A stretch of 64,000 bases of DNA from JAWCQZ01 sp038869515 [NCBI: Halobacteria archaeon] (lineage in GTDB: Archaea > Halobacteriota > Syntropharchaeia > JACQPP01): the NCBI GenBank assembly GCA_038869515.1, contig JAWCQZ010000006.1:1-64000 (forward strand), written 5' to 3'. The translations under genes were made by a program, and so were the position numbers. The notes under the pieces were generated by a model, which saw only the letters and a list, made by a program, of their open reading frames with translations, made no database searches and had not been told where the DNA came from. Shown here one piece after another: positions 9,501 through 50,848 of this stretch (position 1 is the stretch's first letter; each line of letters starts with the position of its first letter).

Positions 9501-12500
9501 CCGCGGTCGCGAACACCCGCCAGGTCATCACCCCGGTGTTCCCCCCGGTGAACACGACCGACGTCGTCGTTTCCGACGACTTCTCCGACGGCGAGATTAC
9601 CTCCAACCCGGCCTGGACCGAGGTCGAGGGGGGATGGACCGCATCGGGCGGCGTCCTCACCTCCACCGCTTTCAACTCCCGGGCCCGCCTGCCCCTCGGG
9701 GCGTCCTTCGACCGGCTGGCCGTCGAGTTCGACTTCGCGGGCTCGGGCGGAATCCTGACCCTGGACGGAGCCACATCCCCCCAAAACACGGGGGCGGGCT
9801 ACGCCCTGATTCTCTCCGGCGATTCCGTCCGCTTCGGCGTGATTGCGGCCTCCGGGGCCGGTTTCTCCGACCTGGCGCCGTCCGTCCCGCTGACGGCCGA
9901 CGGCCAGTTCCACCGCTACCAGTTGGTCCGGGACGGGCCCCGATTCACCCTGCGTGTGGACGGAGTCCAACTCCTCTCCGCCGAGGACGCCGCCAACACA
10001 TTCCCGACCTCCAGCGAACTGGAGGTATTCGCCGGCGGGGCCATCGGAGCGGACCGGTGGGACAACCTGCAGGTCTCCGTCGCGCCCCACGTCGAGCCCG
10101 TCGGGTTCGCCTCGACGAACCGCACCACGGTCGCCCGCGTGGCCGGGACCCTGAACGACGGCCAGGCCGTCGTCCTCCCCGCCCCCGGCTTCGGCGAGGG
10201 GCTCAACCTCCTCGGGTTCTCCACCGACCCGGTGGGCCAGCCCATCGGCCTGCCGTTCGTCAAATCTACCGCAACCTCCGGCAAGTTCCGCTGGAACCTG
10301 AAGGCAGACATCGTGGAGACCTTCAACGTCTCGCGCTCCGACACCCTCTTCGTCGAGCCCGAGGCGGCGCCGGCCAACCTGGAGGTCCCGCCGCCGGTGA
10401 ACGAGAGTCCGCTGGACACGGGGCTGGTCCTGGAGCGGCTGAGCGCCGCCGACTCGTCCGCGTTCCTCGAGAGGCTCGCGCTGCTCCTCCGCGAGTTGGC
10501 CCGGCTGCGCGACGAGTCCCTCAACGCCACCCACGACCCGCTCCTCCGGGCCCGGGTCCGGATAGTCGAGAGGGAGAACGCCACCCTGGACGAGGCGGGG
10601 CGGCTCCTCTCCTCGGACCTCTCGGGCCGCCTCTCGGTGGAGAACCTCGAATCCATCCGCGGCGTCGGGCTCTTCGACCTCCTCCTCGACAACGGAAGCC
10701 TCGGGGGCTCCACGGGGCTTCTGGAGCGCTACCGCATCCTCGGCCTGGGGCCGGGGGAGAACCCCGTCGCCGACTACACGGTCGCCGGGGAGCCGAGGCT
10801 CCGGGCCACCGAAACTGTGGAGGACCCATCCTTCGACAGTTACGTGGAGGCCCAGATTGCGCTCGGGAGGCTCGCCCCCGAGGCTGCGGTGGCGAAGGGA
10901 GGGGTGCGGCTCCTCTTCGGCTCCGAGAACATCCTGAGGCTCACCCTCTCCCTCTCCAACCCCTCCAACCTCACCCTGGAGGGCGTCACCCTCCACCGCC
11001 CGTTGCCGGCCGGGGTCTCCCTGCGAAACCTGACCGGCGGGACGTACGACGCCGCCAACGACACCATCCCCGTCGGCGACCTCGCTCCCGGCGAGAACCG
11101 GACCCTCACCGTCGAGGCCGCCCTCCCCGCGTCGGCCTTCTCCGACCCCGGCGCGGACGAGGTGGCGGTCGTCAGGAACACGAGCGTCACCTACCTGGTC
11201 AACGCCAGCCTCTCCGGAGTCCGCGTCCTCGACCTGCTGGGGAACGAGGTCGACACCATCGTCCGCGAGCCCGCAGTGGAGGAGTCCCGGGGCGAGATTT
11301 CGCTCCGCAACTCGGTCTTGGAGAGAGTGCCGCTCGTCAAGCCCCTGGGTATTCGGACCTCCCTCGACGAGAGGGTCTCCGGCGTCTTCGACACCGCCGG
11401 TGTCTTCCATGAGAGCCGCGCTTCCCGGAGCGGCGTCCTCACGGTCGAGAACCGGGAGGCCTACGACGGCCGCCTCGGGTTCGCCGTCAACCTCTCGAAC
11501 ACCGCCTTCACCTCCCTCTTCCCGGCGGAGAACTTCACAACGCTCTCCCCCGGCCCCAACACGCGCACCTACGTGGAGACCCTCGGCCCGCGGGCGCGGC
11601 TGGCGCTGTCGGCCAACACGAGCCTCGCGGCGGGATTGAGGTACAACTACAACGAGACCCTCACCCTGCGGCTCGACCTCCGCAACCCCTCGAACGAGAC
11701 CCTGGTCGCCACGGCTCGCCTCATCCTACCCGCCAACCTCAGCCTCTGCTGCGAGTTCTCGGTCCAGACCCTGACCCCGGGCCTCACCTACGGGACGGGC
11801 GACCGGAGCCTCTTCTGGAGCGGGACGCTGGGGCCCGGGTCCAACACCAGTTTGGAGGCGCGCGTCTCCCTCCGGGTCACCAACCCCGCCCTCGCCCTCC
11901 AGGGCGCGCTGGTGCTGCCGCTGGAGTGGAACGCCACGACCGAGACGGGCCGCACAGTCTCGGGCGTCTCGGTCAACCGCGTCGTCGGCAACGACCGCTT
12001 CCTGGCGCTGTTGGGCAACAAGACAGAGAGGACGGCCGAAGAACTTACGTTGGACGAAACGTTGAGAATCCCGCTCCTGTCGCGGCTGGTCCTCGCCTGG
12101 ACCACCGACCCGGCCAACCTCGACTTCGTCGGCGCGGTCGCGGCGGCCCGGCCAGACATCCAAATCACCAACGTCAGCACGAAGGCGGACTTCCTCAACG
12201 AACTGCGGACGAAGTTCCACAACGTCCTCTGGCTCGCCAACACCGACTTCGGCGAGAAGTTCACCGACGCCGAGGCGGCCGAGGTCAAGGCGCTCGTGAA
12301 GGCGGGCTCGCCGCTGGGTCGGGGGCTCATCGTGAGCGGATTCGGCCTCAAGTACGCCCCCGAACTCGACACCGTCCTCGGGGTCAAGTACCGCGGCTCC
12401 CTCCCCAACGGCGAGAGGTTCGACCTCCGCCCCGTCGAGGTGGTCCGGGAGCACAACATCACCGAGGGCTTCACGGTGGGGCAGGCCCTGCAGTCCACCT

Positions 12501-13441
12501 CCTGGTTCGTCCGCGCCGAGGTGAAGCGGGCGACCCCGTTGGCGCGGCTGGCGGAGCCTTTCATGCCCGGGAAGCGGCTCGGCGTCCCCGACTGGCAGAA
12601 GGAACTCCCTGCCCTCACCGCCTCCATTTTCGGGAACGGTTCCGGCGTCCTCTTCGCGCCGGACACCGGGACGACCTGGCAGCGCGGCCTCAGCGCGAAG
12701 GGGTGGCTCAACCTCACCATCAACGCGATTGACTGGATTCCCGGAGCTCAAGGAGCGGAAGCGCAGTTGGAGGTCGATACGAAACTGAGCCCGCCCTCCG
12801 TCAAGGCGCGGCTCAACGACCACGGCAACGACGAGAAGAACGTCCACGTCAACGTCACGCTGAAGAACCTCGGGAGTTCCGACTTGTTCGACCTGCGGGC
12901 CTCCACCGCTCTGCCCGACGGGTTCGGGCTCAGGGAGGGCGCCCCGAACGCGACATTCGTTTCCCTGCGGTCGGAGAGCGAGGCGAGTTACGACTTCTCC
13001 GTCGAGGTCCCGGCGAGGGAGGTCGCCGACTACTTCCTGAACACGACGGTCTCCGCCCTCGACGTCCAGGGCGTCTCCCACCTCTTCAGCGGCAACACGA
13101 CCCTGAGGGTCGAGATGCCGCCGGGCCAGGTCTGCGTCGACCCGCCCGAGCACCCCGGCCAGGGCCACGGCAAGGGGGCGGCGAAGGGCAAGGCCAAGAA
13201 GTGCGAGCGGTTCATCACCCCGGGCGGCGGCCCGGAGGCGGACAAGAAGTGCCCGCCCGGGTGGCTGAAGAAGAGCGGGGACGGGACGTGCGAGCACCCC
13301 GGCGGAGGGAACGGCGGCAACAACGGGAACGGCAACGGACAGGGCAACGGGAATGGCGGAGGGAATGGAAACGGCAACGGCGGAGGCAACGGGAACGGCG
13401 GCGGGAATGGGAATGGCAACGGGAATGGAGGTGGGCCGTAG
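3587..13441 (+). CDS. Giant secreted surface protein with LamG-like domains
   Basis: Predicted 3284-aa exported protein. A signal peptide ends near AAQAQ (residue about 31; a second in-frame ATG at 3608 is equally possible). Residues about 190-450 are Gly/Ser-rich and beta-helix-like. Two LamG/concanavalin-like domains span about 862-1075 and 1202-1415 (each with WHLNG or WHMNG, then GEWVHLAGVYDG or GTWVHLAGVYDG and FIDEV). A third lectin-like fold lies near 1997-2165. Later regions have DUF11-like repeats and a Rossmann-like stretch from about 2835. NxS/T sequons are abundant, so heavy N-glycosylation is likely. The tail is Gly/Asn-rich, with no membrane anchor seen. The next surface gene starts on the very next base, implying an operon. 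Likely role: adhesion or cell-surface layer; ligand unknown. Confidence 0.8.
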   Translation: MEYQRVGMGGRPLWALLTLCLLAGIPAAQAQITVYDSGNPSVTFTTSGSFQWSTSPCFGAAAFTSVTLGGDPSLRILSSSASITGPGLGYTAVVSPGGYGEQPAGQSVVYTYSLTANAGVCASNVVSTVYHTTTYAQSLCDSGDLDTVCVVNRSHAFQTPLDILANVVEFQGGGDWAAGAPLALTADEVRVRAGGSLTASPADLSITAGNVTLDGTITGTGNVGINATGGVTGSGSVQLSGPSVGQKGGDITLIAGGRVALPLVRSTGASGGYIPPLSCPYGSSPNGPSLCGGGLGGAIHISGSRVTIPTIESRGGPSVGVFFSQFCTSGATHGGSGGPVTVRNLTGPAAINTNGRDGAAGSFSCSSGGSGGGGGSVTLIDPVGIVSVQSVGGFGGPGSSNTPAGFPGRGGSVAVSGASPQTVLSVVNSESGKPGNAVSATGTTYSLSAITGSDPQAVVTVDASGNLTLNGMTAGFASIRATGLGLGTTVTASGGDGRYCHLLPGSGLGNWVIGGVAAHPSLKQEFGLCAKNVFPELVNRSVSEVQDVAARSPSRLRPRLQVEKAFTINGSPVTQVRAGDLLAVDVTVRNPISPELDGRARMANITLREILPDGLAVVSGSPGTTLSSLSANESARYGYTVRVSGNLTSLPVRTEGTYDWQELEAVNLSGTFGSDPEPFSGGCLAFVSVTGSYDSDGEILASGLFDAAARDLVLDTELVAVNFTDRLNDLVRFQNRLQGTKCIHHTEAADFASGSHVGTRVAPVGDGAIEIQSTGGTGIYTSHVLQDPNGTVVRWRNISWTPVLPPSTSVVVQLRTGDTPAPDATWTPFINYTQSGGGEIQNPPSRYIQYRLLITAPGDSSLAALWHLNGDGVDASGRGNHLSLSGPANYSADGPRLGTHSLALAAGGGGFAQAPNSPSLSISGDQFTVEAWIRQTDRGSNCGGFNFGTQGVVSKYAGSSAPYDLRVENGRPAILAQTSFTGGAILLYSPDTIPLGEWVHLAGVYDGSALRLFVNGTLNASTPLSGTLVQNSAPVKVGATSGDGCDVSFRGFIDEVRISGIARYGADFVPSEEEFAGAPPDLLASLPAVEDVTIEYGLSPCAGADPSANETLCPVAVKVASASSGIVNLSNLSIRSATTNATLQAFSGGQPSVELSFPAAGSQTVEFAIPLASFAPVKSATLEVRGGSFGIPAVPIPPSTAALWHMNGNGVDSSGHGNALSLSNTAAYSTAQAKFGTHSLQVSEGSTNYAIAQDSPSLSVSGNQLTVEAWVYQIHPASHSAACGFSPDTQGVVSKYTGGSAPYDLRVTGGRPQMVVQTGSGGTAFVTSPEVIPIGTWVHLAGVYDGSALRLFVNGVQKAGTSLSGNVVVNSDPVRIGNTYQGCPNAGEFAFNGFIDEVLISSAALHTFDFTPRDREAGSGNFPRSPSLDVGGDGILEWTHGDLELDSPAGLRDHRVLVTGFTNAGGTPTVNPRVSVNGAPFQFTGSLGTGQRARIGFQPLAGHNSLVFDAAGSGRFDFQVRAVRDQPVEFPQEPVRPFLVLTGDSVDGVEAQNISAIINGQTFLHPGPLGPGQKASISIAAALQNGNNDIRFDVTGTDSSGLRVGRFSWEIFDGKRENVTVPGFLTDAEVAFERTGTFTTSTNGTHGCIRISVQFGCQESVSDPGTHLLSIDGSTYTTSTVTPTEIPTPAFLIAPDDHTHTLTVDGRTYESTPSGRHVHTWLWRVAANNHDCLNFVPFSGTFLNIPCSAGAHSHVFRIAPLFGPAVLLGGREYADEIRTGKFGEAVVPLPGPLGGRVDLAFSSREPGNAKFALRGNLYDSEPVRNLTLQVPGNVRNATLTITGDSLFLPFQGPRTADFLGAGVAFPGFRPTQARLPLADPSHQGRVSRASLSLTFGAAGLFDKPVQIFVDGAKVFDQTLPPGELPQEFRDFTIPLGISGPNQRGYVDVSVNSPQAGWYASLDYEVELKTRNPAVANTRQVITPVFPPVNTTDVVVSDDFSDGEITSNPAWTEVEGGWTASGGVLTSTAFNSRARLPLGASFDRLAVEFDFAGSGGILTLDGATSPQNTGAGYALILSGDSVRFGVIAASGAGFSDLAPSVPLTADGQFHRYQLVRDGPRFTLRVDGVQLLSAEDAANTFPTSSELEVFAGGAIGADRWDNLQVSVAPHVEPVGFASTNRTTVARVAGTLNDGQAVVLPAPGFGEGLNLLGFSTDPVGQPIGLPFVKSTATSGKFRWNLKADIVETFNVSRSDTLFVEPEAAPANLEVPPPVNESPLDTGLVLERLSAADSSAFLERLALLLRELARLRDESLNATHDPLLRARVRIVERENATLDEAGRLLSSDLSGRLSVENLESIRGVGLFDLLLDNGSLGGSTGLLERYRILGLGPGENPVADYTVAGEPRLRATETVEDPSFDSYVEAQIALGRLAPEAAVAKGGVRLLFGSENILRLTLSLSNPSNLTLEGVTLHRPLPAGVSLRNLTGGTYDAANDTIPVGDLAPGENRTLTVEAALPASAFSDPGADEVAVVRNTSVTYLVNASLSGVRVLDLLGNEVDTIVREPAVEESRGEISLRNSVLERVPLVKPLGIRTSLDERVSGVFDTAGVFHESRASRSGVLTVENREAYDGRLGFAVNLSNTAFTSLFPAENFTTLSPGPNTRTYVETLGPRARLALSANTSLAAGLRYNYNETLTLRLDLRNPSNETLVATARLILPANLSLCCEFSVQTLTPGLTYGTGDRSLFWSGTLGPGSNTSLEARVSLRVTNPALALQGALVLPLEWNATTETGRTVSGVSVNRVVGNDRFLALLGNKTERTAEELTLDETLRIPLLSRLVLAWTTDPANLDFVGAVAAARPDIQITNVSTKADFLNELRTKFHNVLWLANTDFGEKFTDAEAAEVKALVKAGSPLGRGLIVSGFGLKYAPELDTVLGVKYRGSLPNGERFDLRPVEVVREHNITEGFTVGQALQSTSWFVRAEVKRATPLARLAEPFMPGKRLGVPDWQKELPALTASIFGNGSGVLFAPDTGTTWQRGLSAKGWLNLTINAIDWIPGAQGAEAQLEVDTKLSPPSVKARLNDHGNDEKNVHVNVTLKNLGSSDLFDLRASTALPDGFGLREGAPNATFVSLRSESEASYDFSVEVPAREVADYFLNTTVSALDVQGVSHLFSGNTTLRVEMPPGQVCVDPPEHPGQGHGKGAAKGKAKKCERFITPGGGPEADKKCPPGWLKKSGDGTCEHPGGGNGGNNGNGNGQGNGNGGGNGNGNGGGNGNGGGNGNGNGNGGGP
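13301..13438 (+). repeat. Gly/Asn-coding low-complexity repeat at the end of the giant gene
   Basis: About 46 codons made almost only of GGN and AAC/AAT triplets (GNG, GGGN units). The DNA repeats are short and near-identical, so length variation by slippage or recombination is likely. It is preceded by a Lys/Pro/Cys-rich segment, which resembles a spacer or attachment tail rather than a folded domain. Confidence 0.75.
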
Positions 13442-16400
13442 ATGGTTCAGCCGCCCCAGCCCCGGAAGCGGATGACGATGGGCATCGCGGCCAAGCGGGG
13501 CTTCTCCCTCTTCGCCATGGCGCTGATGCTGGCCGCGCTGGTCCCGCAGTCGGCCTTCGCGCAGACGCCGCAAGCCCCGCCGACCGAGGCCCCGGCGACC
13601 CTCCACGTCCGCATCGAGGAGGAGGTCGCCTCGGCCTACAACGCCACCTCGCGGCTGAGCACGACCGCCACCGGGAGAATCGTCGTCAACAACACCGAGA
13701 ACCGCACGCTGACGAACGTCGTGGTCCGCCTCAACTCCACCTCGGCCACCGACCTGCCCGTCAACAACACCCTCACCGTTCCGTCGCTTCCTCCCGGGGA
13801 GACGGTCGTCGCCACATACAACATCACCACGCAGCCGAGGCTCTCGCTGGGCCACGAATGGAAGTCCCTCACCTACCTCGAAACCGTCGAGGAGCTCTTC
13901 CAGCAGGGGAAACTCTCCCAGGTCGGCCGCCAGATTGCGCTCAACCCGCACAAACTGGCGTACGGCCGGGAGAACCTGCTGGAGTTCAACATCACCGTCT
14001 CGAACACCGGGAGCAAGAACCTGACCAACGTCACCGTCACCGACCTCCTGCCGAACCGGACCGTGAACGGCTCGCTGGTGGCGGTCTCGACCTCCTCGCA
14101 GGTGCCGGACCCCTACGGCGGCGTCCTGACCTATGAGAACGCTTCGGACTCCGTCACCATCCCGCTCCTGCGGAGCGGTTCCAGCACCACCCTCACCCTC
14201 CGCGCGACCCTCCCCGCCTCCGCCTTCGGCCCCGCGGAGCCCCGGTTCACCGACCTGAGACGCGAAATCCGCGCCTACTACACGGTCGAGCGGACCTTCA
14301 CCCAGGAACCCACGCCGGGCCGGACTGCGGAGCGGGAGGCCGAGTTCCAGTCCCGCCTCCTCACGGTCCTCGCGGGCGAGCAGGAGCAGATTGTCCGCGA
14401 CACCGACCCCTTCGAGTTGCTCGACTTCGCGAAGACCCTGGGAACCCTCCAGGAGTTGCCCGGGACCCTCCGCCAGGAGGCTTTCGCCCGCGCCGCGGCC
14501 CTCGGCATCCCGTTGGACAACCAGACCTTCGCCGCCGAACTGGAGAACCAGACCCGGGCCCGCGCCCGCGATGTCGTGAAGCCCCTCGACGACACCCTCA
14601 ACTTCAGCCGCGAGAGGTTCGGCCGGTTCATCACCAACTACGGCCGCCTCGCGGCCCTGACCTTCGAGGCGAACCGGACCCTGCAGAGCATCCTCGCCCC
14701 CCTCAACATCACCGTCAACGAGACCGACCGCCGCGAGGCGCTGCAGAACCTCTCCGAGAGCGGCTTCCCGGCCGAAATCGTGCAGGTCCTGCACAACGAG
14801 AGTTTGAACGACACCCAAATCGAGGAGTTGCGCCAGTTCCTGCTGAACAACTCCGAAACCCTCGCCAACACCAGCCTCGAACGGTCCCTCCGGAACCTCC
14901 AGAAGACCTATCTCTCCGCCGGTGGAGAGTTCCTCAACATGAGCACCCAGGTGCTCGCCAACCGGGTGATGCTGGCGGAGAGCCTGGGCCTCCGCGGCAA
15001 CCTCACCGGTGCCGAAATCCAATCCTTGCACTCGGTGCGGACCGCCCTCAACGCCTCCCTGCAGGTCCGCAACTGGACCCAAATCCGCGACCTCGGGAAA
15101 CAGCTCATGGACCTCGGTTGGAACTACACGCTCCGGACCGGCGACGTCCTCTTCGCCGGCGTCTACTGGAAGGCGGCCCGCTTCCACCAAGCGGGCATCC
15201 TGGGAGTCGCCGGAGACAACGCCTCCGCGGAGTCCCTCATCCTCAACCTCACCCCAGAGTCCCACATCTACGGCTTCCTCACCGCCACCAGCGCCACGAT
15301 TTCCGGGGGCGATCCGGTCACCATCCCCCTCCGGGTCCTCACCTCCGACCTCCCCGAGAGGAGCTCCGGACTCCTCCACCTCCGGGTCGTCGACCCCGAC
15401 GACAACGTCCTCACCGAAGACCTCATCTGCGGCGACTTCGAGGCCACCCAAGGCGGCGTGTCCGAGGCGTGCTCCATCCCCGCCACGGTCTCCAGCGCCC
15501 TCTTCTCCTCGGTGGGCAACTACCGCGCCAACGTCCGGTGGCTCTCGAACCACGAGACCGGGGCCATCGGCCAGACTTTCCTCGTGGTGGTCACGACCCC
15601 GGCTCCGCCCCCGGGAGGGGGCGGCGGCGCGCCGTCGCCCACCCCGACCCCCTTCCCGAGCCCCGCCCCCACCCCCACACCGCCCGCGGGCCCCAAGGTC
15701 ACCATCCGCGTCGTGGTGAAGGACGCGAGCGGGCAATCGGTGCCGAATGCGAAACTAACGATTCTGGACAAGGACGGGAGGTGGTCCACCTCCGGCACCT
15801 TCTTCGGGACCGTCCCCGCGGGAATCTCCGTGGACTGGCGCGAGGCCCTCTCCTTCTTCCTGTTCTGCTCGAACCGGGGGTACGACCCCTCGATGGCCAA
15901 GGTGGAGGTCGCGCAGCTCCAGCTCGCCCCCGGGACCTCTTCCCCGGTCTTCGAGTGCAAGTTGGGATCCCCCGCCTCCCCGGAGGCCGGGAAGGTTCCC
16001 GTGACCGTCCACCTGCCGGAGGTCATCACGGTCGACACCCGGTTCCTGTCGATTTCCACGGCGGCCGTCCTCGCCTCGGGCGAAGACGTCCCTCTCATCC
16101 GCACCCCCATCGCGGGCGCCGAGGTCCGAGTGTTCGACCGGCAGAACGTCCTGCAGGGGAGGACGCTCACGGACCCGAATGGCGACGCCCTGTTCAACCT
16201 GAAGCCGAACCAGCACTACTCCGCCGAGGTGTCGCAGGCCGTCATCTTCCTCGACCACGCCTGGACCAGCCTGCCCCGAGGGAGGGTGGAGTTCGACGTG
16301 CAGGCTATCGGTGTGGGCGGGGTCGCCCAGGGGCTCGTTGTGAACTGGGACCAGCCGTGGGTGGAGAATGTGAAGTTCAGGTTGCGGTCTGCAACATGTC

Positions 16401-16729
16401 CGTTAAATAATGCATTCTCTGCACTTCCCCCGGAAGTGCCTGCCGCTCTTTGGGGGGGTGCCCAGACACTCAATCGAAAATGGTCGATTCAGACTACTTT
16501 GTCTGGGTTGAAAGGCTTCGAATTAATTAAAGCGGTCAAGGAGTTACAAGCAACACTGAAGCCAATTGTAGCCGAAGCCCGTTCCAGTCTCAATTACTTG
16601 GGAATCATTAATGCGGCCCTGTTTGGGACCTGCACCGCAACGGGCGGAGAGGGGAAATTCTTTGGAGCCAGTGTTGATTTAGTACAGCGGAAAGCAGTTG
16701 TACCAATTTTAGGTGAGATACGATGGTGA
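13442..16729 (+). CDS. Second secreted surface protein, DUF11/NEW3-like repeats
   Basis: Predicted 1095-aa exported protein whose start touches the stop of the giant gene. A signal peptide ends near QSAFAQT (residue about 41). Ig-like conserved-repeat domains (for example NTGSKNLTNVTVTDLLPN) are followed by a helical Asn-rich section, a Pro-rich linker near 15598-15690 (PSPTPTPFPSPAP) and Ig-like domains. Base composition changes sharply at about 16385: the last 115 codons are AT-richer and unlike the rest. Residues about 535-613 (15043-15279) recur at 17113-17349. It probably works with the giant protein at the surface; the C-terminus looks replaced by recombination. Confidence 0.75.
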   Translation: MVQPPQPRKRMTMGIAAKRGFSLFAMALMLAALVPQSAFAQTPQAPPTEAPATLHVRIEEEVASAYNATSRLSTTATGRIVVNNTENRTLTNVVVRLNSTSATDLPVNNTLTVPSLPPGETVVATYNITTQPRLSLGHEWKSLTYLETVEELFQQGKLSQVGRQIALNPHKLAYGRENLLEFNITVSNTGSKNLTNVTVTDLLPNRTVNGSLVAVSTSSQVPDPYGGVLTYENASDSVTIPLLRSGSSTTLTLRATLPASAFGPAEPRFTDLRREIRAYYTVERTFTQEPTPGRTAEREAEFQSRLLTVLAGEQEQIVRDTDPFELLDFAKTLGTLQELPGTLRQEAFARAAALGIPLDNQTFAAELENQTRARARDVVKPLDDTLNFSRERFGRFITNYGRLAALTFEANRTLQSILAPLNITVNETDRREALQNLSESGFPAEIVQVLHNESLNDTQIEELRQFLLNNSETLANTSLERSLRNLQKTYLSAGGEFLNMSTQVLANRVMLAESLGLRGNLTGAEIQSLHSVRTALNASLQVRNWTQIRDLGKQLMDLGWNYTLRTGDVLFAGVYWKAARFHQAGILGVAGDNASAESLILNLTPESHIYGFLTATSATISGGDPVTIPLRVLTSDLPERSSGLLHLRVVDPDDNVLTEDLICGDFEATQGGVSEACSIPATVSSALFSSVGNYRANVRWLSNHETGAIGQTFLVVVTTPAPPPGGGGGAPSPTPTPFPSPAPTPTPPAGPKVTIRVVVKDASGQSVPNAKLTILDKDGRWSTSGTFFGTVPAGISVDWREALSFFLFCSNRGYDPSMAKVEVAQLQLAPGTSSPVFECKLGSPASPEAGKVPVTVHLPEVITVDTRFLSISTAAVLASGEDVPLIRTPIAGAEVRVFDRQNVLQGRTLTDPNGDALFNLKPNQHYSAEVSQAVIFLDHAWTSLPRGRVEFDVQAIGVGGVAQGLVVNWDQPWVENVKFRLRSATCPLNNAFSALPPEVPAALWGGAQTLNRKWSIQTTLSGLKGFELIKAVKELQATLKPIVAEARSSLNYLGIINAALFGTCTATGGEGKFFGASVDLVQRKAVVPILGEIRW
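15043..15279 (+). repeat. Source copy of a duplicated 237-bp segment
   Basis: This part of the second surface gene aligns without gaps to 17113-17349 (offset 2070 bases) at about 95% identity. It encodes the stretch around LGWNYTLRTGDVLFAGVYWK. Confidence 0.85.
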
Positions 16730-38004: not shown

Positions 38005-39363
38005 TCACCCCGAGCCCCGTTCCGCAATAAACTTCCTCTTGGTTCGGTAGTTGGAAGCATCATCCACCTCCACAAGACCCGACCGAACCAGATGCAGGTT
38101 CACGAAGGTCTTGTTCTTCAGAAAAAGATAGGCAAGGAGGTCCCCTCGTGCATCATATTTTTGGTCGTCGAACTTCAGGAACACCTTCTGCCCTCTCACC
38201 AGACCCTCGACGAAGCGCAATGCCTCCTCTCTTGTCTGCGCCACCGGCTTGACGCCAAGCAAACGGACCCTCAAACCGGTATCAAGTTCTATGAGATCCG
38301 GTGCCTCGATACTCTTGACAGTGTGCAATCGCGCGTCTGGCGTCTCGGTCCCGTCGATTTTGGAGCCGAAGCTAAGCTTCCTGGGATCCACTTTCTTATC
38401 GAAGCACACCGGATCTTTGAAAACGTAGGGCAACCCGGCGATCCGCTCGTTGAAACTGGGAAGGGGGCCTTCTTGTTCTGCGACTTCAAACCGCAGAGGT
38501 GCCTCGGCTTGCAATGAGATGAGGCGGTTTTCGATGGTCGCAAGGAACTTTCGATTGATCTCATAGCCAACAGAGTTCCGCCCGAGCCTGCCTGCGGCGA
38601 CGGAGGCAGTCCCGCTTCCGAGAAATGGGTCGAGAACAGTGTCGCCTACGAAAGTAAACATCCGAATTAACCGCCGGGGCAACTCCTCGGGGAACGCCGC
38701 AAGGTGCTTATCCTGTTTTTCGCCGGGAAAATTCCAATGGCCGTAAAAATATTCATTCCATTCCTCGGTTGTCAGCTTCGATCTTTCCTTCGCTTCCTCG
38801 CCGGGTTGTGGTGGTTTTCCGAGTTTCTTGAAGAGGAGGATGAATTCGTAGTCGATCTTGACAATGCCGTTCCGGGGGTAGGGAAACGAGCCCATGACCG
38901 TGGCACCTCCGGTTGTGTTGGTGGTGGTCACCTTCTGCCAGATGATGGCCCCCATGTAGTCGAAGCCGAGGGTCTCGCAGAATTTGGTAATCTCCGTCCG
39001 GATGGGGATGACCTTGTAGCGCCCGTAATAGACCGACCGCGCGAACTGGTCCCCGATGTTGATGCAGAGGCGGCATCCCGGATGGAGGACCCGGTAGCAC
39101 TCCTTCCAGACGAGGTTGAGGTTGTTGATGTAGTCCTCATAGGTGTCGTTGAATCCGATCTGGTCCTCGTGGCCGTAGTCCTTCAACTGCCAATAGGGAG
39201 GTGAGGTCACAACGAGATGAACGCTCTCGTCCGGGACCTCCTTCATGGCCCGAGAGTCCCCGAAAATGATCCGATGATGGGTCGGTGACGGGCCTGGAAA
39301 ACCGGTCGTCGCGGGCAGTGTCCTTTCTGCACCTCCCCCCGCCTTGGTCCCGTTCGACGTCAT
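38005..39363 (-). CDS. DNA methyltransferase (N4-C/N6-A) with C-terminal SNase-like domain
   Basis: Predicted 452-aa modification enzyme. Motif IV TSPPYW is at residues 53-58 and motif I DPFLGSGT at 245-252, the order of beta-class enzymes; TSPPYW favours N4-cytosine methylation. Residues about 350-445 resemble a staphylococcal nuclease OB fold: LDTGLRVRLLGVKPV, then DARGDLLAYLFLKNKTFVNL and HLVRSGLVEV. The usual GR in this motif reads GD, and the PE after the first strand is absent, so the tail is probably not catalytic. The ATG at 39363 is preferred to an upstream GTG. Cognate partner of the MjaI-type nuclease. Confidence 0.85.
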   Translation of the reverse strand: MTSNGTKAGGGAERTLPATTGFPGPSPTHHRIIFGDSRAMKEVPDESVHLVVTSPPYWQLKDYGHEDQIGFNDTYEDYINNLNLVWKECYRVLHPGCRLCINIGDQFARSVYYGRYKVIPIRTEITKFCETLGFDYMGAIIWQKVTTTNTTGGATVMGSFPYPRNGIVKIDYEFILLFKKLGKPPQPGEEAKERSKLTTEEWNEYFYGHWNFPGEKQDKHLAAFPEELPRRLIRMFTFVGDTVLDPFLGSGTASVAAGRLGRNSVGYEINRKFLATIENRLISLQAEAPLRFEVAEQEGPLPSFNERIAGLPYVFKDPVCFDKKVDPRKLSFGSKIDGTETPDARLHTVKSIEAPDLIELDTGLRVRLLGVKPVAQTREEALRFVEGLVRGQKVFLKFDDQKYDARGDLLAYLFLKNKTFVNLHLVRSGLVEVDDASNYRTKRKFIAERGSG

Positions 39364-39475
39364 AGGATTTGGATTTTCCACGCTTTCATTTCAAACCACC
39401 CCAGAGCGCCGTGAAAGTGCTTTTCTTCCCGTCCGTTGCCGACGGGACGGGAGGGTTTCCGAGTGGACCGGCAAC

Positions 39476-42816: not shown

Positions 42817-44109
42817 ATGGAGGCGTTCCTCGGGGCCCTCCTCTTCGGCGGAGGGGGCGCCCTCCTCGGCCTCGCGGCGGGCCTCCTCCCCGGACTCCAC
42901 TCCAACACCACGGCCGCCCTCCTCGCCTCCCTCGCTCCCGCCGCCGCGGCGGGCCTTCCCGCCCCCCCGGAGACCGCGGCGCTCTGGCTCGCCTGCGCCA
43001 TCGTGGCGGCCGCTGTGACGGAGACCTTCGCCACGTTCATCCCGGCCACCTTCTTCGGCGCCCCCGACGAGGGGACCGCGCTGGTCACCCTGCCGGGCCA
43101 CCGGATGCTCATGGAGGGGCGGGGCTACGAGGCGGTCGCCCTCTCCGCCCTCGGCTCCCTCGGCGCTGTGGCCGTCGGCTTCGGACTCCTCATCCCCTTC
43201 CGGCTCCTGGTGGGCCCCCCGGTGGATGGATACGGAACCCTCCGGGCCGCCCTCCTCCCCCTCCTCGCGGGAATCACCGCCCTCCTCATTCTCACCGACC
43301 ACGACGTCCTGCGGCCCCGGGGGCCGCTGTGGGCGGCGGCGGTATTCCTACTCAGCGGGGCGCTGGGGATGGTCGCCCTCGACCTCCCGACCCCGGGGCT
43401 CCTCGGGCCGTGGGGCTCGCCCCTCATGCCCCTGCTCCTGGGACTCTTCGGCCTCCCCGCCCTCCTCGCCTCCTCCGACCGGCCCCCGGAGGTCCCTCCC
43501 CAGAGCCTCGGGGAGCCCAGGATCTCCCCCGGGCCCGCCGCCGCTTCGGTCGCCTCGGGGACCCTCTGGGGCGCCCTCATGGGATTTCTCCCGGGCGTCA
43601 CCTCGGCCCAGGCGACCGTCCTCGCGATGCTGGCGCGCCGCCGGAGGGAGCCCGAACAGGTCATCCTCACCCTGAGCGCGGTGAACACCGCCAACGCCCT
43701 CTTCGTCCTCGCCGCCTACTTCACCATCCTCCGCCCCCGGAGCGGCGCGGTCGTCTCCATCAGCCACTTCCTGCCCCCCGAGCCCTGGAGCGGCCTGGCG
43801 CCCCCCGCGCCACTCGCGGGCCTCCTCGCGGCGGTGGTGGTGGCGTCGGTGGTGGGCTACTTCGCCGTCCGCTGGATGGGGCGGAACCTCGCGCCGCTGA
43901 TGGCACGGGTCTCCTACCGGGCGCTGAGCCGGGGGCTGCTCGCCGCGCTCGTGCTGCTGACCCTCCTCCTCACCGGCCCCGTCGGCCTCGCCATCCTCGC
44001 CCCGGCCACCGCGGTCGGGATGCTCCCGCCGAGGGTGGGAGTCCGGAGGACCCACGCGATGGGTGTGCTCCTCCTGCCGGTGATGCTCGGGCTGGCGGGA
44101 CTGCGCTAG
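42817..44109 (+). CDS. TctA-like archaeal membrane protein
   Basis: Predicted 430-aa integral membrane protein with about ten hydrophobic segments. Two internally similar halves each carry a Gly-Pro-Gly loop: LAAGLLPGLHSNTTAALLAS and GALMGFLPGVTSAQATVLAM, the signature of the TctA/COG1784-type permeases. In bacteria TctA works with TctB and a periplasmic TctC for carboxylates; here the partner may instead be the OB-fold membrane protein encoded just upstream. The stops of this gene and the convergent kinase overlap by 4 bases. Substrate unknown. Confidence 0.7.
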   Translation: MEAFLGALLFGGGGALLGLAAGLLPGLHSNTTAALLASLAPAAAAGLPAPPETAALWLACAIVAAAVTETFATFIPATFFGAPDEGTALVTLPGHRMLMEGRGYEAVALSALGSLGAVAVGFGLLIPFRLLVGPPVDGYGTLRAALLPLLAGITALLILTDHDVLRPRGPLWAAAVFLLSGALGMVALDLPTPGLLGPWGSPLMPLLLGLFGLPALLASSDRPPEVPPQSLGEPRISPGPAAASVASGTLWGALMGFLPGVTSAQATVLAMLARRRREPEQVILTLSAVNTANALFVLAAYFTILRPRSGAVVSISHFLPPEPWSGLAPPAPLAGLLAAVVVASVVGYFAVRWMGRNLAPLMARVSYRALSRGLLAALVLLTLLLTGPVGLAILAPATAVGMLPPRVGVRRTHAMGVLLLPVMLGLAGLR

Positions 44110-45614
44110 AGGCGGAGCGCGATGGCGGCCGCAGCCCCGATCATCGTCCCGAAGAGGTTCGACTCCTCCTTCGAGAGGAACTTCAGCCGCGACGTAGCCC
44201 GGACCACGAGCCAGCCGCCGAAGCCGCCGACCATCGAGGCGGTGAAGGCGGGGAGTCCCATCCCGGAGGGGTTGAAGAGTCCGAGGAGGAGGAGCCCCGT
44301 CACCGCGCTCCCCGCGAGGGCGGCCCCCGCCCGCGTCGCGATGGAGCGGGAGGCGATGCGGCCGCTGGCGGTGTCGGCGGCGGCGGTGGCGATGGAGCCG
44401 GCGAAGAGGAGGGTGGCGAAGGCCGGCGAGGCGGGGTAGAGGACCGCGGCGAACGCCGGGACCGCCCCGTTCGCCACGATGGAGGAGGCGGAGCGCTTCA
44501 TCTCGGTCCCCCTCAGGGCGACCGCGAAGCCGAAGAAGAGGAGGAGCGCGAGGAAGAAGGAGGGGCCTGACGCCTGGTAGACCAGCGCCCCGAAGAAGAC
44601 CGCCGCCCCCGCTCCGAGGCCGTCGAGGAACCGCGTGAGGTAGGCCGCCCCCGCCGCGCCGAGGAGGATCGGCATGATGACGAACCAGAACTGGGGGCTC
44701 GGGTTGAGGAGGGGGGCGTCGGCGCCGCTCACCAGGACCATCGCGGAGATGGTCGGCAGGATGAGGTTGTCCCCGATGCGGAGCGGCAGCGACTCGAAGA
44801 GCGCCGCGCTCATCGCGACCATCAGCGCGAGGAGGGGGTGGATGCGCTCTTCCTCGGGGAAGAACAGGTTCAGGAGGAGGACCGAGTAGAAGGCGGCGAG
44901 GACGAAGGCGATCGAGCCCTCCTTGGTCTTCTGCGGGTTGTGGGACCAGTGGCGCTTCCCGATGAGCCGCCCGACCAGGGCCGCGGCGGGGTCGGCGTAG
45001 GTGAGGACCGCGATGGAGACGGCGGCGACGAGGGGCGGGACCATGAGCGCCACCACCAGCGCCGCGCTCAGGAAGAAGAGCGGCGCGAGGAGCCCCTCCG
45101 CCTCCTCCCCGCGCATGGCGGGGTTCATGATGCGCCGGAGGAATGTGGTGACCGGGTTGGGGTCGTCCAGGCGGCGGAGATATTCCGCGACCATCAGCAG
45201 GGCGATGACCACCCCGAAGGCGAGGATGAAGAGGCTGGGGCTCAACAGGAGGAGGGCGAGCCCCGCGCTGCCGGAGGTGAGGTGGACGAAAGAGCGGTAG
45301 ACCTGGTGGGGGACCCGGCCGCTGAGGAGGTAGGCCGCCACGAGCCCGCCGGCCAGGATCGCCCCCGCCACCCAGACGCCCGAGGGGACCTCGGCGAGGA
45401 GGAGGGCCCATACGCGGAAGGTCTCCGCGTTCCAGGCGAGGGCGTCCCCCCGGTAGACCAGCAGAAGCATGGCGAGGGGGGCGCCGGCGAGCCCGACCGC
45501 GAGGGAAGGGATTGCCGGGAGCCGACGTCGGGCGAGGTGGGTGAAGGCGAGGACGAGCCCGCCGAGGCCGATGTCCACCCCGAGAGTCTTCAGGACGAGG
45601 GGGTCGATGGCCAT
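44106..45614 (-). CDS. Fused polyprenol (phytol-type) kinase and DUF92 polyprenyl-phosphate kinase
   Basis: Predicted 502-aa polytopic membrane protein with two enzymatic modules. Residues about 100-295 match the SEC59/VTE5 kinase family: SFVHLTSG, YADPAAALVGRLIGKRHW, KTKEGS at 229-234 and ESLPLRIGDNLILPTISA. Residues about 310-502 match DUF92/VTE6: FFGFAVALRGTEMKRSASSI, ANGAVPAFAAVLYP and ATAAADTASGRIA. In phototrophs, VTE5 phosphorylates phytol and VTE6 adds the second phosphate. A fusion would recycle geranylgeraniol-type alcohols to diphosphates for archaeal lipids; that role is inference. A paralog lies 22 bases upstream. Confidence 0.75.
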   Translation of the reverse strand: MAIDPLVLKTLGVDIGLGGLVLAFTHLARRRLPAIPSLAVGLAGAPLAMLLLVYRGDALAWNAETFRVWALLLAEVPSGVWVAGAILAGGLVAAYLLSGRVPHQVYRSFVHLTSGSAGLALLLLSPSLFILAFGVVIALLMVAEYLRRLDDPNPVTTFLRRIMNPAMRGEEAEGLLAPLFFLSAALVVALMVPPLVAAVSIAVLTYADPAAALVGRLIGKRHWSHNPQKTKEGSIAFVLAAFYSVLLLNLFFPEEERIHPLLALMVAMSAALFESLPLRIGDNLILPTISAMVLVSGADAPLLNPSPQFWFVIMPILLGAAGAAYLTRFLDGLGAGAAVFFGALVYQASGPSFFLALLLFFGFAVALRGTEMKRSASSIVANGAVPAFAAVLYPASPAFATLLFAGSIATAAADTASGRIASRSIATRAGAALAGSAVTGLLLLGLFNPSGMGLPAFTASMVGGFGGWLVVRATSRLKFLSKEESNLFGTMIGAAAAIALRL

Positions 45615-45636
45615 GGCGCTGGTTGCTCCTCCGGCC

Positions 45637-47133
45637 TTAAAGGGCGGCGGCAGCGGCCGCCCCCGCCAGGGTCCCGAAGAGGTTGGACTCCTCCTTGGAG
45701 ATGAAGGGGAGGCGGGAGGTCACGCGGACCACGACCCAGCCGCCGAAGCCGCCCCCGAGGGTCGCGACGAGGAGGAGGCTCCCCGGGCCCGCGGAGCCCA
45801 GGACCCCGTAGAGAAGGAGCCCCATGAGGCCCGCGCCGGCGGGGGCGGCGACCCACTGCCGGCGGGGGCCGGAGACCCGGGAGGCGGCGGTGTCCGCGGC
45901 GGCCGCGCCGATGGAGCCGGCGAAGAGGAGCATCGCGAGGGCGGGGGCGGTGGGGTAGAGGACGGCGGCGAAAGCGGGGATGGCGCCGTTGGCGACGATG
46001 GAGGCGGCCGACCGCTTCACCGAGGGGCCCCGGAGAGCGACGGCAAACCCGAAGAGGAGCAGGAGGGCGAAGAAGAAGGGGCTCCCCGAGGCCTGGTAGA
46101 CGATGGCGCCGAAGAAGATGGCGGCGCCCGCCCCGAGGCCGTCGAGGAGCCGCGTCAGGTAGGCCGCCCCCCCGACGCCGAGGAGGAGGGGGAAGACAAC
46201 GAGCCAGAAGTGGGGGCTCGGGCTGAGGAGGGTCGCCTCCGCGCCGCTGACGAGGACCATCCCCGCGATGGCGGGGAGGACGAGGTTGTCCCCGATGCGG
46301 AGGGGGAGCGACTCGAAGAGCGCCGCGCTCATGGCGACGAGGAGGGCGAGGAGCGGGTGGATGCGCTGCTCCGGCGGGAAGAGGAGGCCGAGGAGCAGGA
46401 GGGCGTAGAAGGCGACCAGGACGAAGGCGATCGAGCCCTCCTTGGTCTTCTGCGGGTTGTGGGACCAGTGGCGCTTGCCGATCTTCCTCCCGACGAAGCC
46501 CGCCGCGGGGTCGGCGAAGGTGAGGACGGCGATGGAGGCGGCGGCCGGCAGGAGGGGGAGGAAGAGGGCGACGAGGAGCGAGGAGACGAGGAAGAAGAGG
46601 GAGGCGACGTAGCCCTGCGTCTCCCCCGCGCGGAGGGCGGGGTTGAGGATGCGCCGGAGGAACCTCGGAATGGGACCGGGGTCGTCGCTCCGCCGCAGGT
46701 ACTCCGAGAGGCAGAAGAGGACGATGGCGACCCCGACGGCGAAGAGGAAGAGGTTGGCGCCGAGGAGGAGGATGAAGAGGAGGAGCGTTCCTGCGGTCAT
46801 GTGCATCAGCGAGCGGTAGGTCGGCCCCGCGAGGCGGGTGCTGAGGAGGTAGGCGATGGAGAGGCCGCCCGCCAGGAGCCCGGCCGAAATCCCCACCCCG
46901 GCGGAGGCCTCGGCGAGGAGGAGGGAGGCCATGGCGCTCCCCTCTCCGGCCCACGCCGCGGGGTCCCCCCGGAAGAGTGTGAGAAGAATTGTGGCCGGGG
47001 CTGCGGCGAGCGAGACCGCCAGGGCGGGGGCGAGGGGGAGCCGTTTCCGGAGGAGGTGGAGGGTCCCCACCACGAGGGCTCCGAAGAGCAGGAGGACCGC
47101 AAGGGAGCGGAGGGTGAGAGGGTCCACCGCCAT
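45637..47133 (-). CDS. Second fused polyprenol kinase/DUF92 protein (paralog)
   Basis: Predicted 498-aa paralog of the next gene downstream, similar along the whole length and with the same two modules: SLMHMTAG, FADPAAGFVGRKIGKRHW, KTKEGS, ESLPLRIGDNLVLPAIAG, then FAVALRGPSVKRSAASIVAN and GSIGAAAADTAAS. Segments such as GKRHWSHNPQKTKEGSIAFV are identical in both. Tandem duplication after the fusion is the simplest history; keeping two copies suggests different alcohol substrates or two kinase subunits. A palindromic region lies upstream at 47152-47188 and probably controls both genes. Confidence 0.75.
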   Translation of the reverse strand: MAVDPLTLRSLAVLLLFGALVVGTLHLLRKRLPLAPALAVSLAAAPATILLTLFRGDPAAWAGEGSAMASLLLAEASAGVGISAGLLAGGLSIAYLLSTRLAGPTYRSLMHMTAGTLLLFILLLGANLFLFAVGVAIVLFCLSEYLRRSDDPGPIPRFLRRILNPALRAGETQGYVASLFFLVSSLLVALFLPLLPAAASIAVLTFADPAAGFVGRKIGKRHWSHNPQKTKEGSIAFVLVAFYALLLLGLLFPPEQRIHPLLALLVAMSAALFESLPLRIGDNLVLPAIAGMVLVSGAEATLLSPSPHFWLVVFPLLLGVGGAAYLTRLLDGLGAGAAIFFGAIVYQASGSPFFFALLLLFGFAVALRGPSVKRSAASIVANGAIPAFAAVLYPTAPALAMLLFAGSIGAAAADTAASRVSGPRRQWVAAPAGAGLMGLLLYGVLGSAGPGSLLLVATLGGGFGGWVVVRVTSRLPFISKEESNLFGTLAGAAAAAAL

Positions 47134-47151: not shown

Positions 47152-47188
47152 ACGTCATTTATCAACCTTTTTCTACGGCAAATGACGT
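47152..47188. promoter_or_regulatory. Long inverted repeat upstream of the fused kinase genes
   Basis: ACGTCATTT (47152-47160) and AAATGACGT (47180-47188) form a perfect 9-bp inverted repeat around a 19-base AT-rich spacer; a second, overlapping pair ATCAAC/GTTGAT (47161-47166, 47187-47192) is also present. The site sits just before the ATG at 47133 on the minus strand in a rare AT-rich patch, as expected for a promoter with an operator. Confidence 0.5.
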
Positions 47189-50161: not shown

Positions 50162-50848
50162 ATGGCCCGCGACGGGTCGCCTCCCTGGAGGGGGTGGACC
50201 CACATCACCAAACTCGACCCCGACCGGCCCATCGCCCCCGAGGCGGTGAAGGCGGTCGCCGAGGGGGGGACGAGCGCCGTCATGGTGTCGGGGACCCAGA
50301 ACGTCACCTCGAAGAAAATCGCGCGCCTGGTGGAGTTGCTCCGGCCCTACGACCTGCCGAAGGTCCTGGAGCCGGTGGACGGCTCGATGGTGACCTACGA
50401 CCCCTTCGATTACGTCTTCGTCCCCACCGTGCTCAACAGCGGGAATCCCGCCTTCATCGTCGGCAAGCACGCGGCCTGGCTGAAGCGGGGCGAGGTCCGG
50501 TGGGAGCGGGTGGTCCCCGAGGCCTACCTGGTGCTGAACCCCGACTCCGCCGTGGGGCGTCTCACCCAGGCCAAGCCCCTCGACGCCGAGACGGCGGCGG
50601 CCTACGCGGCGGCGGCGGAGGGATACTTCAACTTCCCGGTCGTCTACATCGAGTGCTCCGGGACCTTCGGCAGCCCGGAGGTGGTGGAGGCGGTGAAGAG
50701 GCGGCTGAAGGGGGCCGCGCTCTTCTACGGCGGGGGCATCGACGGCGCGGAGAGGGCGAAGACGATGAAGCGGTGGGCCGACGCCGTCGTGGTGGGGAAC
50801 GTCCTCTACGAGAAGGGGCTCGACGCCTACCTCGAGACCGTTGTCTGA
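50162..50848 (+). CDS. Geranylgeranylglyceryl phosphate synthase
   Basis: Predicted 228-aa TIM-barrel enzyme that joins geranylgeranyl diphosphate to glycerol-1-phosphate, the first committed step of archaeal membrane lipids. Motifs: HITKLDPDRP, GGTSAVMVSGTQNVT, FVPTVLNSGNPAFIVGKHA, YIECSG and the phosphate-binding YGGGIDGAERAKTM with ADAVVVGN. One base after rpo11; followed after one base by the aspartate dehydrogenase ATG. Confirms ether lipids on G1P. Confidence 0.93.
   Translation: MARDGSPPWRGWTHITKLDPDRPIAPEAVKAVAEGGTSAVMVSGTQNVTSKKIARLVELLRPYDLPKVLEPVDGSMVTYDPFDYVFVPTVLNSGNPAFIVGKHAAWLKRGEVRWERVVPEAYLVLNPDSAVGRLTQAKPLDAETAAAYAAAAEGYFNFPVVYIECSGTFGSPEVVEAVKRRLKGAALFYGGGIDGAERAKTMKRWADAVVVGNVLYEKGLDAYLETVV

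What the first reader, a model, noticed from the sequence alone, without database searches (positions are those of the whole stretch)
44106..47133. Tandem fused isoprenol kinase / isoprenyl-phosphate kinase paralogs
Each protein joins a SEC59/VTE5-type kinase to a DUF92/VTE6-type module, the two successive steps that convert phytol or geranylgeraniol to diphosphate in phototrophs. A fused and then duplicated version in an archaeon would be a salvage route for lipid alcohols feeding GGGP synthase, which lies 3 kb away.
Basis: partly seen in the sequence, partly recalled or inferred. Interest (0 to 1): 0.65.

Follow-up and report, generated by a model that had tools for sequence, protein, structure and literature searches.

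The report
Twin lipid-alcohol kinases, half decayed
Two neighbouring archaeal genes encode membrane enzymes made of two joined kinase-like halves, but in both copies only the first half still has its catalytic signature, so they probably add one phosphate to an isoprenoid alcohol rather than carrying out the two-step salvage first proposed.

Summary
In detail: two complete tandem genes (44106-45614, 45637-47133, minus strand; 63% identical) each join a SEC59/VTE5-like half (PF01148 class) to a half of DUF92/VTE6 origin. The two-step reading does not hold for these copies: three DUF92 motifs found in 37, 37 and 38 of 38 archaeal reference domains are absent from both C-halves, while the N-halves keep D-x2-A-x3-G-x3-G, KTxEG and E...DN. 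dN/dS is alike in both halves (0.41, 0.40), so the C-half is constrained but probably not catalytic. The closest held relative (G187) has a fusion with both halves intact, near UbiA, polyprenyl synthase and geranylgeranyl reductase genes; G005 has the two as adjacent genes. The nearby GGGP synthase is weak evidence: its block is conserved in G187 without the kinase genes. SEC59-like/DUF92 fusions and the uppS context of DUF92 are in print (Makarova et al. 2015). In 34 long DUF92 ORFs checked here the picture is the opposite: DUF92 intact, no kinase nucleotide motif in the N-terminal part. Verdict: new variant of a known kind, most likely a duplicated one-step isoprenoid-alcohol kinase of unknown substrate.

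The parts
45637..47133 (-). upstream copy (win2, P0002), 498 aa: hydrophobic leader (about 1-100), SEC59/VTE5-like half (about 101-300), DUF92-derived half (about 310-498)
   Evidence: ORF; kinase motifs DPAAGFVGRKIG, KTKEGS, ESLPLRIGDN; 0 of 3 DUF92 motifs
44106..45614 (-). downstream copy (win1, P0001), 502 aa, same architecture
   Evidence: ORF; PF01148 25.6 bits for residues 1-305; motifs DPAAALVGRLIG, KTKEGS, ESLPLRIGDN; 0 of 3 DUF92 motifs
44715..45314 (-). SEC59-like half of copy 1 (residues 101-300)
   Evidence: aligns with 29 stand-alone archaeal proteins of 161-220 aa; D208, A211, G215, G219, G233, E274, D282, N283 invariant in a 14-row alignment
44106..44681 (-). DUF92-derived half of copy 1 (from residue 312), motifs lost
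   Evidence: 15 of 38 conserved DUF92 columns kept, against 30 of 38 in G187's fusion
47152..47188 (.). perfect 9-bp inverted repeat (ACGTCATTT, 19-base spacer, AAATGACGT) in the AT-rich leader of the pair, possible operator
   Evidence: 1 match in the window, 0 of 100 shuffles with a match; whole-window shuffles understate chance in an AT-rich leader; not found in the loci then held

Best explanation
A tandemly duplicated polytopic membrane enzyme of the SEC59/VTE5 kind. The N-terminal half binds an NTP (probably CTP) through D-x2-A-x3-G-x3-G...KTxEG and transfers one phosphate to an isoprenoid alcohol (geranylgeraniol-like or longer) at the membrane. The C-terminal half descends from a DUF92/VTE6-type kinase that in the ancestor probably did the second phosphorylation; in both window copies it has lost the likely nucleotide-loop equivalent and the second aspartate and now serves as a non-catalytic, still constrained, structural or substrate-handling domain. 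A second phosphorylation, if made, would need a separate intact DUF92 enzyme, such as G187 has. Shown: architecture, duplication, motif retention and loss, orthologues, similar dN/dS of the two halves. Inferred: CTP use, alcohol substrate, loss of C-half activity, role of the C-half.
For: N-half: PF01148 above cut-off for copy 1's N-half; DxxAxxxGxxxG and KTxEG both present in both copies; grouped with the G187 and G005 kinases at 98/95 (which warns of long branches). C-half: groups with G187's and G005's DUF92 at 100/100, with a branch of 2.55 changes per column leading to the window pair against 0.04 for G187's tip; 15 and 12 of 38 conserved columns kept, against 30, 33 and 31 in the three intact relatives; 0 of 3 motifs in both copies, against 37, 37 and 38 of 38 references (patterns written after seeing the alignment). 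dN/dS 0.41 in residues 101-300, 0.40 in 301-502, 0.81 in the leader. G187's fusion shares a 7-kb stretch with UbiA, polyprenyl synthase and geranylgeranyl reductase genes. G187 also has a separate intact DUF92 beside a cis-prenyltransferase homologue.
Against: No solved structure matches the kinase profile by sequence, and the AlphaFold model from two sequences was worthless (mean pLDDT 40), so the fold is untested. PF01148 is called in only 3 of 14 aligned members and in neither full-length copy. Only 4 of 29 stand-alone relatives fit the strict KTxEG pattern, 25 of 29 a looser EG one. The first K of the recalled KKTxEG motif is Q here. Neither substrate nor nucleotide is tested. G187's second, lone kinase (L125) lacks KTxEG. 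In nothing I read are DUF92's catalytic residues shown by experiment, so 'dead' is an inference.
Confidence: 0.6

Rival explanations
1. One reading: each protein is a bifunctional enzyme that turns geranylgeraniol (or phytol) into the diphosphate in two steps, feeding GGGP synthase.
For: Architecture and ancestry fit; G187's orthologue keeps both halves and sits near prenyl-lipid genes. [quoted passage not shown]
Against: All three DUF92 motifs are lost in both window copies, the stretch of one largely deleted. The GGGPS block is conserved in G187 without these genes.
Confidence: 0.12
2. Same one-step kinase chemistry, but on the long-chain glycosyl carrier (dolichol or polyprenol), as a true dolichol kinase.
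For: The common archaeal DUF92 gene stands next to a cis-prenyltransferase homologue in 12 of 30 loci tested (Pfam Prenyltransf over cut-off in 4 of 4 such neighbours scanned), a context reported by Makarova et al.. SEC59 itself is a dolichol kinase.
Against: That context belongs to the common DUF92, not to this subfamily. The one informative neighbourhood of this subfamily (G187) has a trans-polyprenyl synthase, UbiA and geranylgeranyl reductase; G005's pair has no recognisable isoprenoid neighbour on its 4.3-kb contig.
Confidence: 0.25
3. The N-half is a cytidylyltransferase (CDP-lipid synthase) rather than a kinase.
For: PF01148 is named Cytidylyltransferase family and also covers CdsA-type enzymes (recalled).
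Against: The CdsA C-terminal signature (PGHGGxxDRxD, recalled) is not seen in either translation; the tail is E...DN..P, shared with the stand-alone archaeal family.
Confidence: 0.06
4. The C-half, or one whole copy, is a decaying remnant without function.
For: Motif loss; the dN/dS of 0.4 is not strict.
Against: dN/dS is equal in both halves, both frames are fully open, and the C-half keeps SKEESNLFGT and VANG blocks in both copies.
Confidence: 0.1

Closest known systems
arCOG02245 two-domain proteins (e.g. Mbar_A3310: SEC59-like domain plus COG1836/DUF92), Makarova et al. 2015, PMC5898192 (passages)
   Same: Order and kind of the two domains; the A2 profile aligns with long DUF92 ORFs over positions 103-478 at best (E 3.5e-22)
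   Different: In 34 long DUF92 ORFs examined here the N-terminal part has neither DxxAxxxGxxxG nor KTxEG (0 of 34 each), while the DUF92 motifs stand; in the window it is the reverse. The paper says the two presumed catalytic aspartates of the N-domain are conserved in Mbar_A3310; in my alignment of 14 such domains 13 lack D at the D208 column and one (L141) has it. Not resolved.
SEC59/DOLK/VTE5/FOLK kinases
   Same: Recalled DxxAxxxGxxxGx8KKTxEG motif (first K is Q here); PF01148 superfamily
   Different: Fused to a DUF92-derived half; no direct comparison with a eukaryotic or cyanobacterial member was made here; substrate unknown
VTE6 / DUF92 (PF01940, TIGR00297, COG1836)
   Same: C-half descends from it
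   Different: All three motifs lost, scores below both curated cut-offs
   Same: Same subfamily in both trees
   Different: One fusion with both halves intact (plus a lone kinase gene elsewhere in G187), or unfused

Membership tests
SEC59/VTE5-type kinase (PF01148 superfamily) | PF01148 match over cut-off | tested here: met
   25.6 bits against 24 for the N-half of copy 1 scanned alone; no match in the full-length scans of either copy
SEC59/VTE5-type kinase (PF01148 superfamily) | D-x2-A-x3-G-x3-G and KTxEG nucleotide motif (motif recalled) | tested here: met
   both copies; first K of KKTxEG is Q
SEC59/VTE5-type kinase (PF01148 superfamily) | NTP-dependent phosphorylation of an isoprenoid alcohol | not testable with these tools
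   needs an assay
DUF92/VTE6 kinase (PF01940) | PF01940 or TIGR00297 match over cut-off | tested here: not met
   13.1 and 18.7 bits against 27.5; 19 and 10.5 bits against 205.85
DUF92/VTE6 kinase (PF01940) | motifs DTxx[TS]E[IV]G, G[TVAS]xGxx[ST]xxG and [DN][ST]xxG[AS] | tested here: not met
   0 of 3 in both copies; 37, 37 and 38 of 38 references have them
DUF92/VTE6 kinase (PF01940) | common descent with DUF92 | tested here: met
   tree 100/100 with the G187 and G005 DUF92; 44% identity to the intact fusion
arCOG02245 SEC59-DUF92 fusion | SEC59-like N-domain plus DUF92 C-domain in one chain | tested here: met
   the window's C-domain is degenerate
CdsA-type cytidylyltransferase | PGHGGxxDRxD C-terminal signature (recalled) | tested here: not met
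   not seen on reading both translations

The most novel reading that the evidence does not exclude
SEC59-DUF92 fusions are the unassigned archaeal geranylgeraniol kinase / geranylgeranyl-phosphate kinase system, and lineages have subfunctionalised it in opposite directions: the common long form keeps the second-step half and uses a dead first half as scaffold, while the window lineage keeps the first-step half twice and uses a dead second half as scaffold, perhaps as a heterodimer.
Probability: 0.2. Interest if true: 0.6.

Novelty: new variant of a known kind. Interest (0 to 1): 0.36.

Why it matters
Two sequential isoprenoid kinase activities were reported from an archaeon in 1996 (cited in PMC9385802), and a 2022 review speaks in its title of the missing pathway for farnesol and geranylgeraniol salvage (PMC9782597). 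A family in which the two halves occur fused and intact (G187), as an adjacent pair (G005), and with one or the other half stripped of its motifs (window; common long DUF92) gives a natural set of constructs to assign each step to a half. It also warns against reading VTE5-VTE6 function from domain architecture alone.

Tried and rejected
Own-genome search: no whole genome is held for the window. Genome-contig scan with the two paralogues: 18 pattern matches, none confirmed. tblastn against plasmids: none. AlphaFold from the two window rows: mean pLDDT 40, discarded, so no fold search was run. PDB sequence searches with copy 1 and with a 14-row kinase profile: none. GGGPS proximity as functional evidence: set aside. 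Contamination of G187: 16 fetched pieces with readable sequence have GC 0.644-0.717 and its GGGPS block is collinear with the window's, so I treat it as one high-GC relative; it also holds two further GGGPS-like matches, so mixture is not excluded. Alignment A3 had out-of-frame rows (my coordinates) and was discarded; redone.

Surveys with A2 (at most 3 candidates a genome scored in the first): 392 genomes of the phylum of G187, 44 with a match at 1e-13, only G187 with a close full fusion and G005 with the pair; 145 of the phylum of G010, 56 with a match at 1e-6, none covering both halves (the longest reach past the kinase half, G424 positions 121-368, runs through a stop); 29 of the phylum of G004, 11 with a match, none over both halves. 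With A1 at 1e-3, overlapping sets of the first phylum: 45 of 148, 33 of 100 and 27 of 58 genomes. Thermoplasmatota, Thermoproteota, Asgard archaea and bacteria were not searched by design and no handle for them was known, so rarity is claimed only for what was searched. Dropped rows: one 334-aa kinase relative (L090, with a PAP2 domain) left out of the 29 stand-alone proteins; 12 of 34 long DUF92 ORFs with short N-parts left out of the profile comparison; duplicates removed from the 38 references.

Literature: the paper identifying VTE6 is not held. Searches for DUF92 with isoprenoid and for a phytol/phytyl-phosphate kinase fusion gave 0 papers, though one search then found Makarova et al. under COG1836, so such zeros are weak. 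I saw no description of a fusion with the DUF92 half degenerate in the listings; most subscription papers are not in that library.

Full report
What is there. Two complete ORFs lie in tandem on the minus strand, 45637-47133 (498 aa, upstream) and 44106-45614 (502 aa), 22 bases apart. They are 63% identical over 491 aligned residues. Downstream lies a convergent TctA gene (42817-44109, PF01970). Upstream are an unassigned ORF, a pyridoxal-dependent decarboxylase (mfnA-like), a methyltransferase, an ORF with ECR1_N (Csl4-like), an RpoL-like ORF and GGGP synthase at 50162-50848 (the names mfnA, Csl4 and RpoL are from reading translations and no call).

N-terminal half. Scanned full-length, neither copy gives a kinase family. 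Residues 1-305 of copy 1 alone match PF01148 at 25.6 bits (cut-off 24); 3 of 14 aligned members of the family match it, best E 5e-7. D-x2-A-x3-G-x3-G, KTxEG and E...DN are present in both copies; the motif is recalled from dolichol-kinase work. A profile of five N-halves finds 29 stand-alone archaeal proteins of 161-220 aa, besides a 334-aa one with a PAP2 domain that I left out. Of the 29, 25 have DxxAxxxGxxxG and 23 E...DN, but only 4 fit the strict KTxEG pattern and 25 a looser EG one. Of seven relatives scanned against NCBIfam, none matched a kinase model.

C-terminal half. DUF92 scores are under the cut-off (13.1 and 18.7 bits). The G187 orthologue (L124:7480-9105, 541 aa, 44% identical to copy 1) matches DUF92 at 133.8 bits, and the separate G005 protein at 153.8. 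In a tree of 43 DUF92 domains the window pair, G187's fusion and G005's protein form one group (100/100), away from 39 others including G187's second DUF92 (several branches are long and win2's composition is flagged). Of 38 columns conserved in at least 90% of 38 references, copy 1 keeps 15, copy 2 keeps 12, the G187 fusion 30, G005 33 and G187's second DUF92 31. Three motifs, present in 37, 37 and 38 of 38 references and in all three intact relatives, are absent from both window copies; I wrote the patterns after seeing the alignment. The stretch carrying the second motif is largely deleted. Makarova et al. relate DUF92 to PF01148 by HHpred and say the two metal-binding aspartates are conserved in DUF92 (PMC5898192, passages). 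The window C-halves keep the ADT aspartate and lose the DSxxGA one; that these two are the aspartates meant is my inference.

Is the C-half just decay? Nei-Gojobori dN/dS between the copies is 0.81 for residues 1-100, 0.41 for 101-300 and 0.40 for 301-502. With GC3 of 96% dS may be underestimated, so only the comparison between halves is used: the C-half is held as firmly as the kinase half.

Relatives and history. In 392 genomes of the phylum holding G187, only G187 has a close full-length fusion (E 7.7e-234) and G005 the adjacent pair. G187 also has a lone kinase gene of the same group (L125). G187 and G005 fall in one class of 58 held genomes. That class holds G075, whose contig length equals that of the Methanophagales record of L045, so it is probably the ANME-1-bearing class; this is inference, and the window's own taxon is not known. 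DUF92 itself is nearly universal there: 145 of 148 genomes of the phylum sample, mostly in long open frames. A profile of the N-halves hits the N-terminal part of some of 34 long DUF92 ORFs: 10 of 34 at E below 1e-6, 6 below 1e-8, best 4e-13, the rest weak or none. Profile comparison of 22 of the 34 N-parts gives 97% probability (E 1e-10) with the stand-alone kinases and 94% with the window family; seven DUF92 domains as a comparison gave under 1% with either. In the 34 ORFs neither nucleotide motif is found in the N-part (0 of 34 each; E...DN in 9 of 34). The kinase-like N-parts form a group of their own (14 rows, 100/100, long branch). So such fusions are old or repeated, and loss has gone opposite ways.

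Context. G187's fusion shares about 7 kb with genes for a threonine synthase-like and a MoaD-like protein (names from reading), UbiA prenyltransferase, polyprenyl synthase and a geranylgeranyl reductase-like protein (Pfam), all on the same strand, with a zinc-ribbon-like ORF on the other strand between them. The common DUF92 stands beside a cis-prenyltransferase homologue in 12 of 30 loci (flanks of about 1.5 kb), as Makarova et al. reported for uppS. I saw no such gene next to the window pair. The GGGPS block of the window is collinear with G187 contig C86, in whose 13,953 bases the kinase profile finds nothing.

Mechanism and verdict. The best reading is a duplicated one-step isoprenoid-alcohol kinase with a scaffold-like C-half. 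CTP as donor, the alcohol substrate and the loss of C-half activity are inferred, not shown. The literature reached covers the architecture, the Sulfolobus kinases (cited in PMC9385802, passages), VTE5/VTE6/FOLK (PMC9782597 and PMC10849223, passages), dolichol kinase (PMC11542857, passages) and few dolichol-kinase homologues in prokaryotes (PMC5088576, passages). Novelty: new variant of a known kind.

Noticed in passing
window 47152-47188: Perfect 9-bp inverted repeat with a 19-base spacer in the AT-rich leader just before the start codon of the gene pair; unique in the window and not found in the loci then held.
   Followed up: partly
L090:1483-2487 (-): A 334-aa ORF joins a PAP2 phosphatase domain (PF01569, 40.6 bits) to a SEC59-like kinase half (kinase profile E 4e-21): phosphatase and kinase in one membrane protein.
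   Followed up: no
window 38005-39381 (-): An N6/N4 DNA methylase (PF01555) joined to a staphylococcal-nuclease-like domain (PF00565, 24.3 bits, cut-off 21) in one 458-aa ORF.
   Followed up: no
L099:134-688 (-), L190:5774-6631 (-), L150:221-880 (-), L133:97-744 (-): Cis-prenyltransferase homologues divergent from DUF92 genes match mainly the C-terminal half of Pfam Prenyltransf; the L099 translation seems to lack the usual N-terminal substrate motif (recalled) and ends near RxG, so they may be non-catalytic partner subunits of a heteromeric enzyme. M. mazei has a heteromeric one (PMC8131916, passages).
   Followed up: partly
L125:3063-3914 (+): G187's second kinase paralogue has no DUF92 half, and its KTxEG reads KTYLGT, so it may itself be degenerate or of other specificity.
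   Followed up: no
window 3587-16729 (+): Two very long adjacent ORFs (3284 and 1095 aa). The second matches DUF11, and a carboxypeptidase-regulatory-like domain just under its cut-off; the first was not scanned and long ORFs on the other strand overlap it. Possibly giant surface proteins.
   Followed up: no
window 42817-44109 (+): A TctA-family transporter subunit (PF01970, 172 bits) next to the pair.
   Followed up: no
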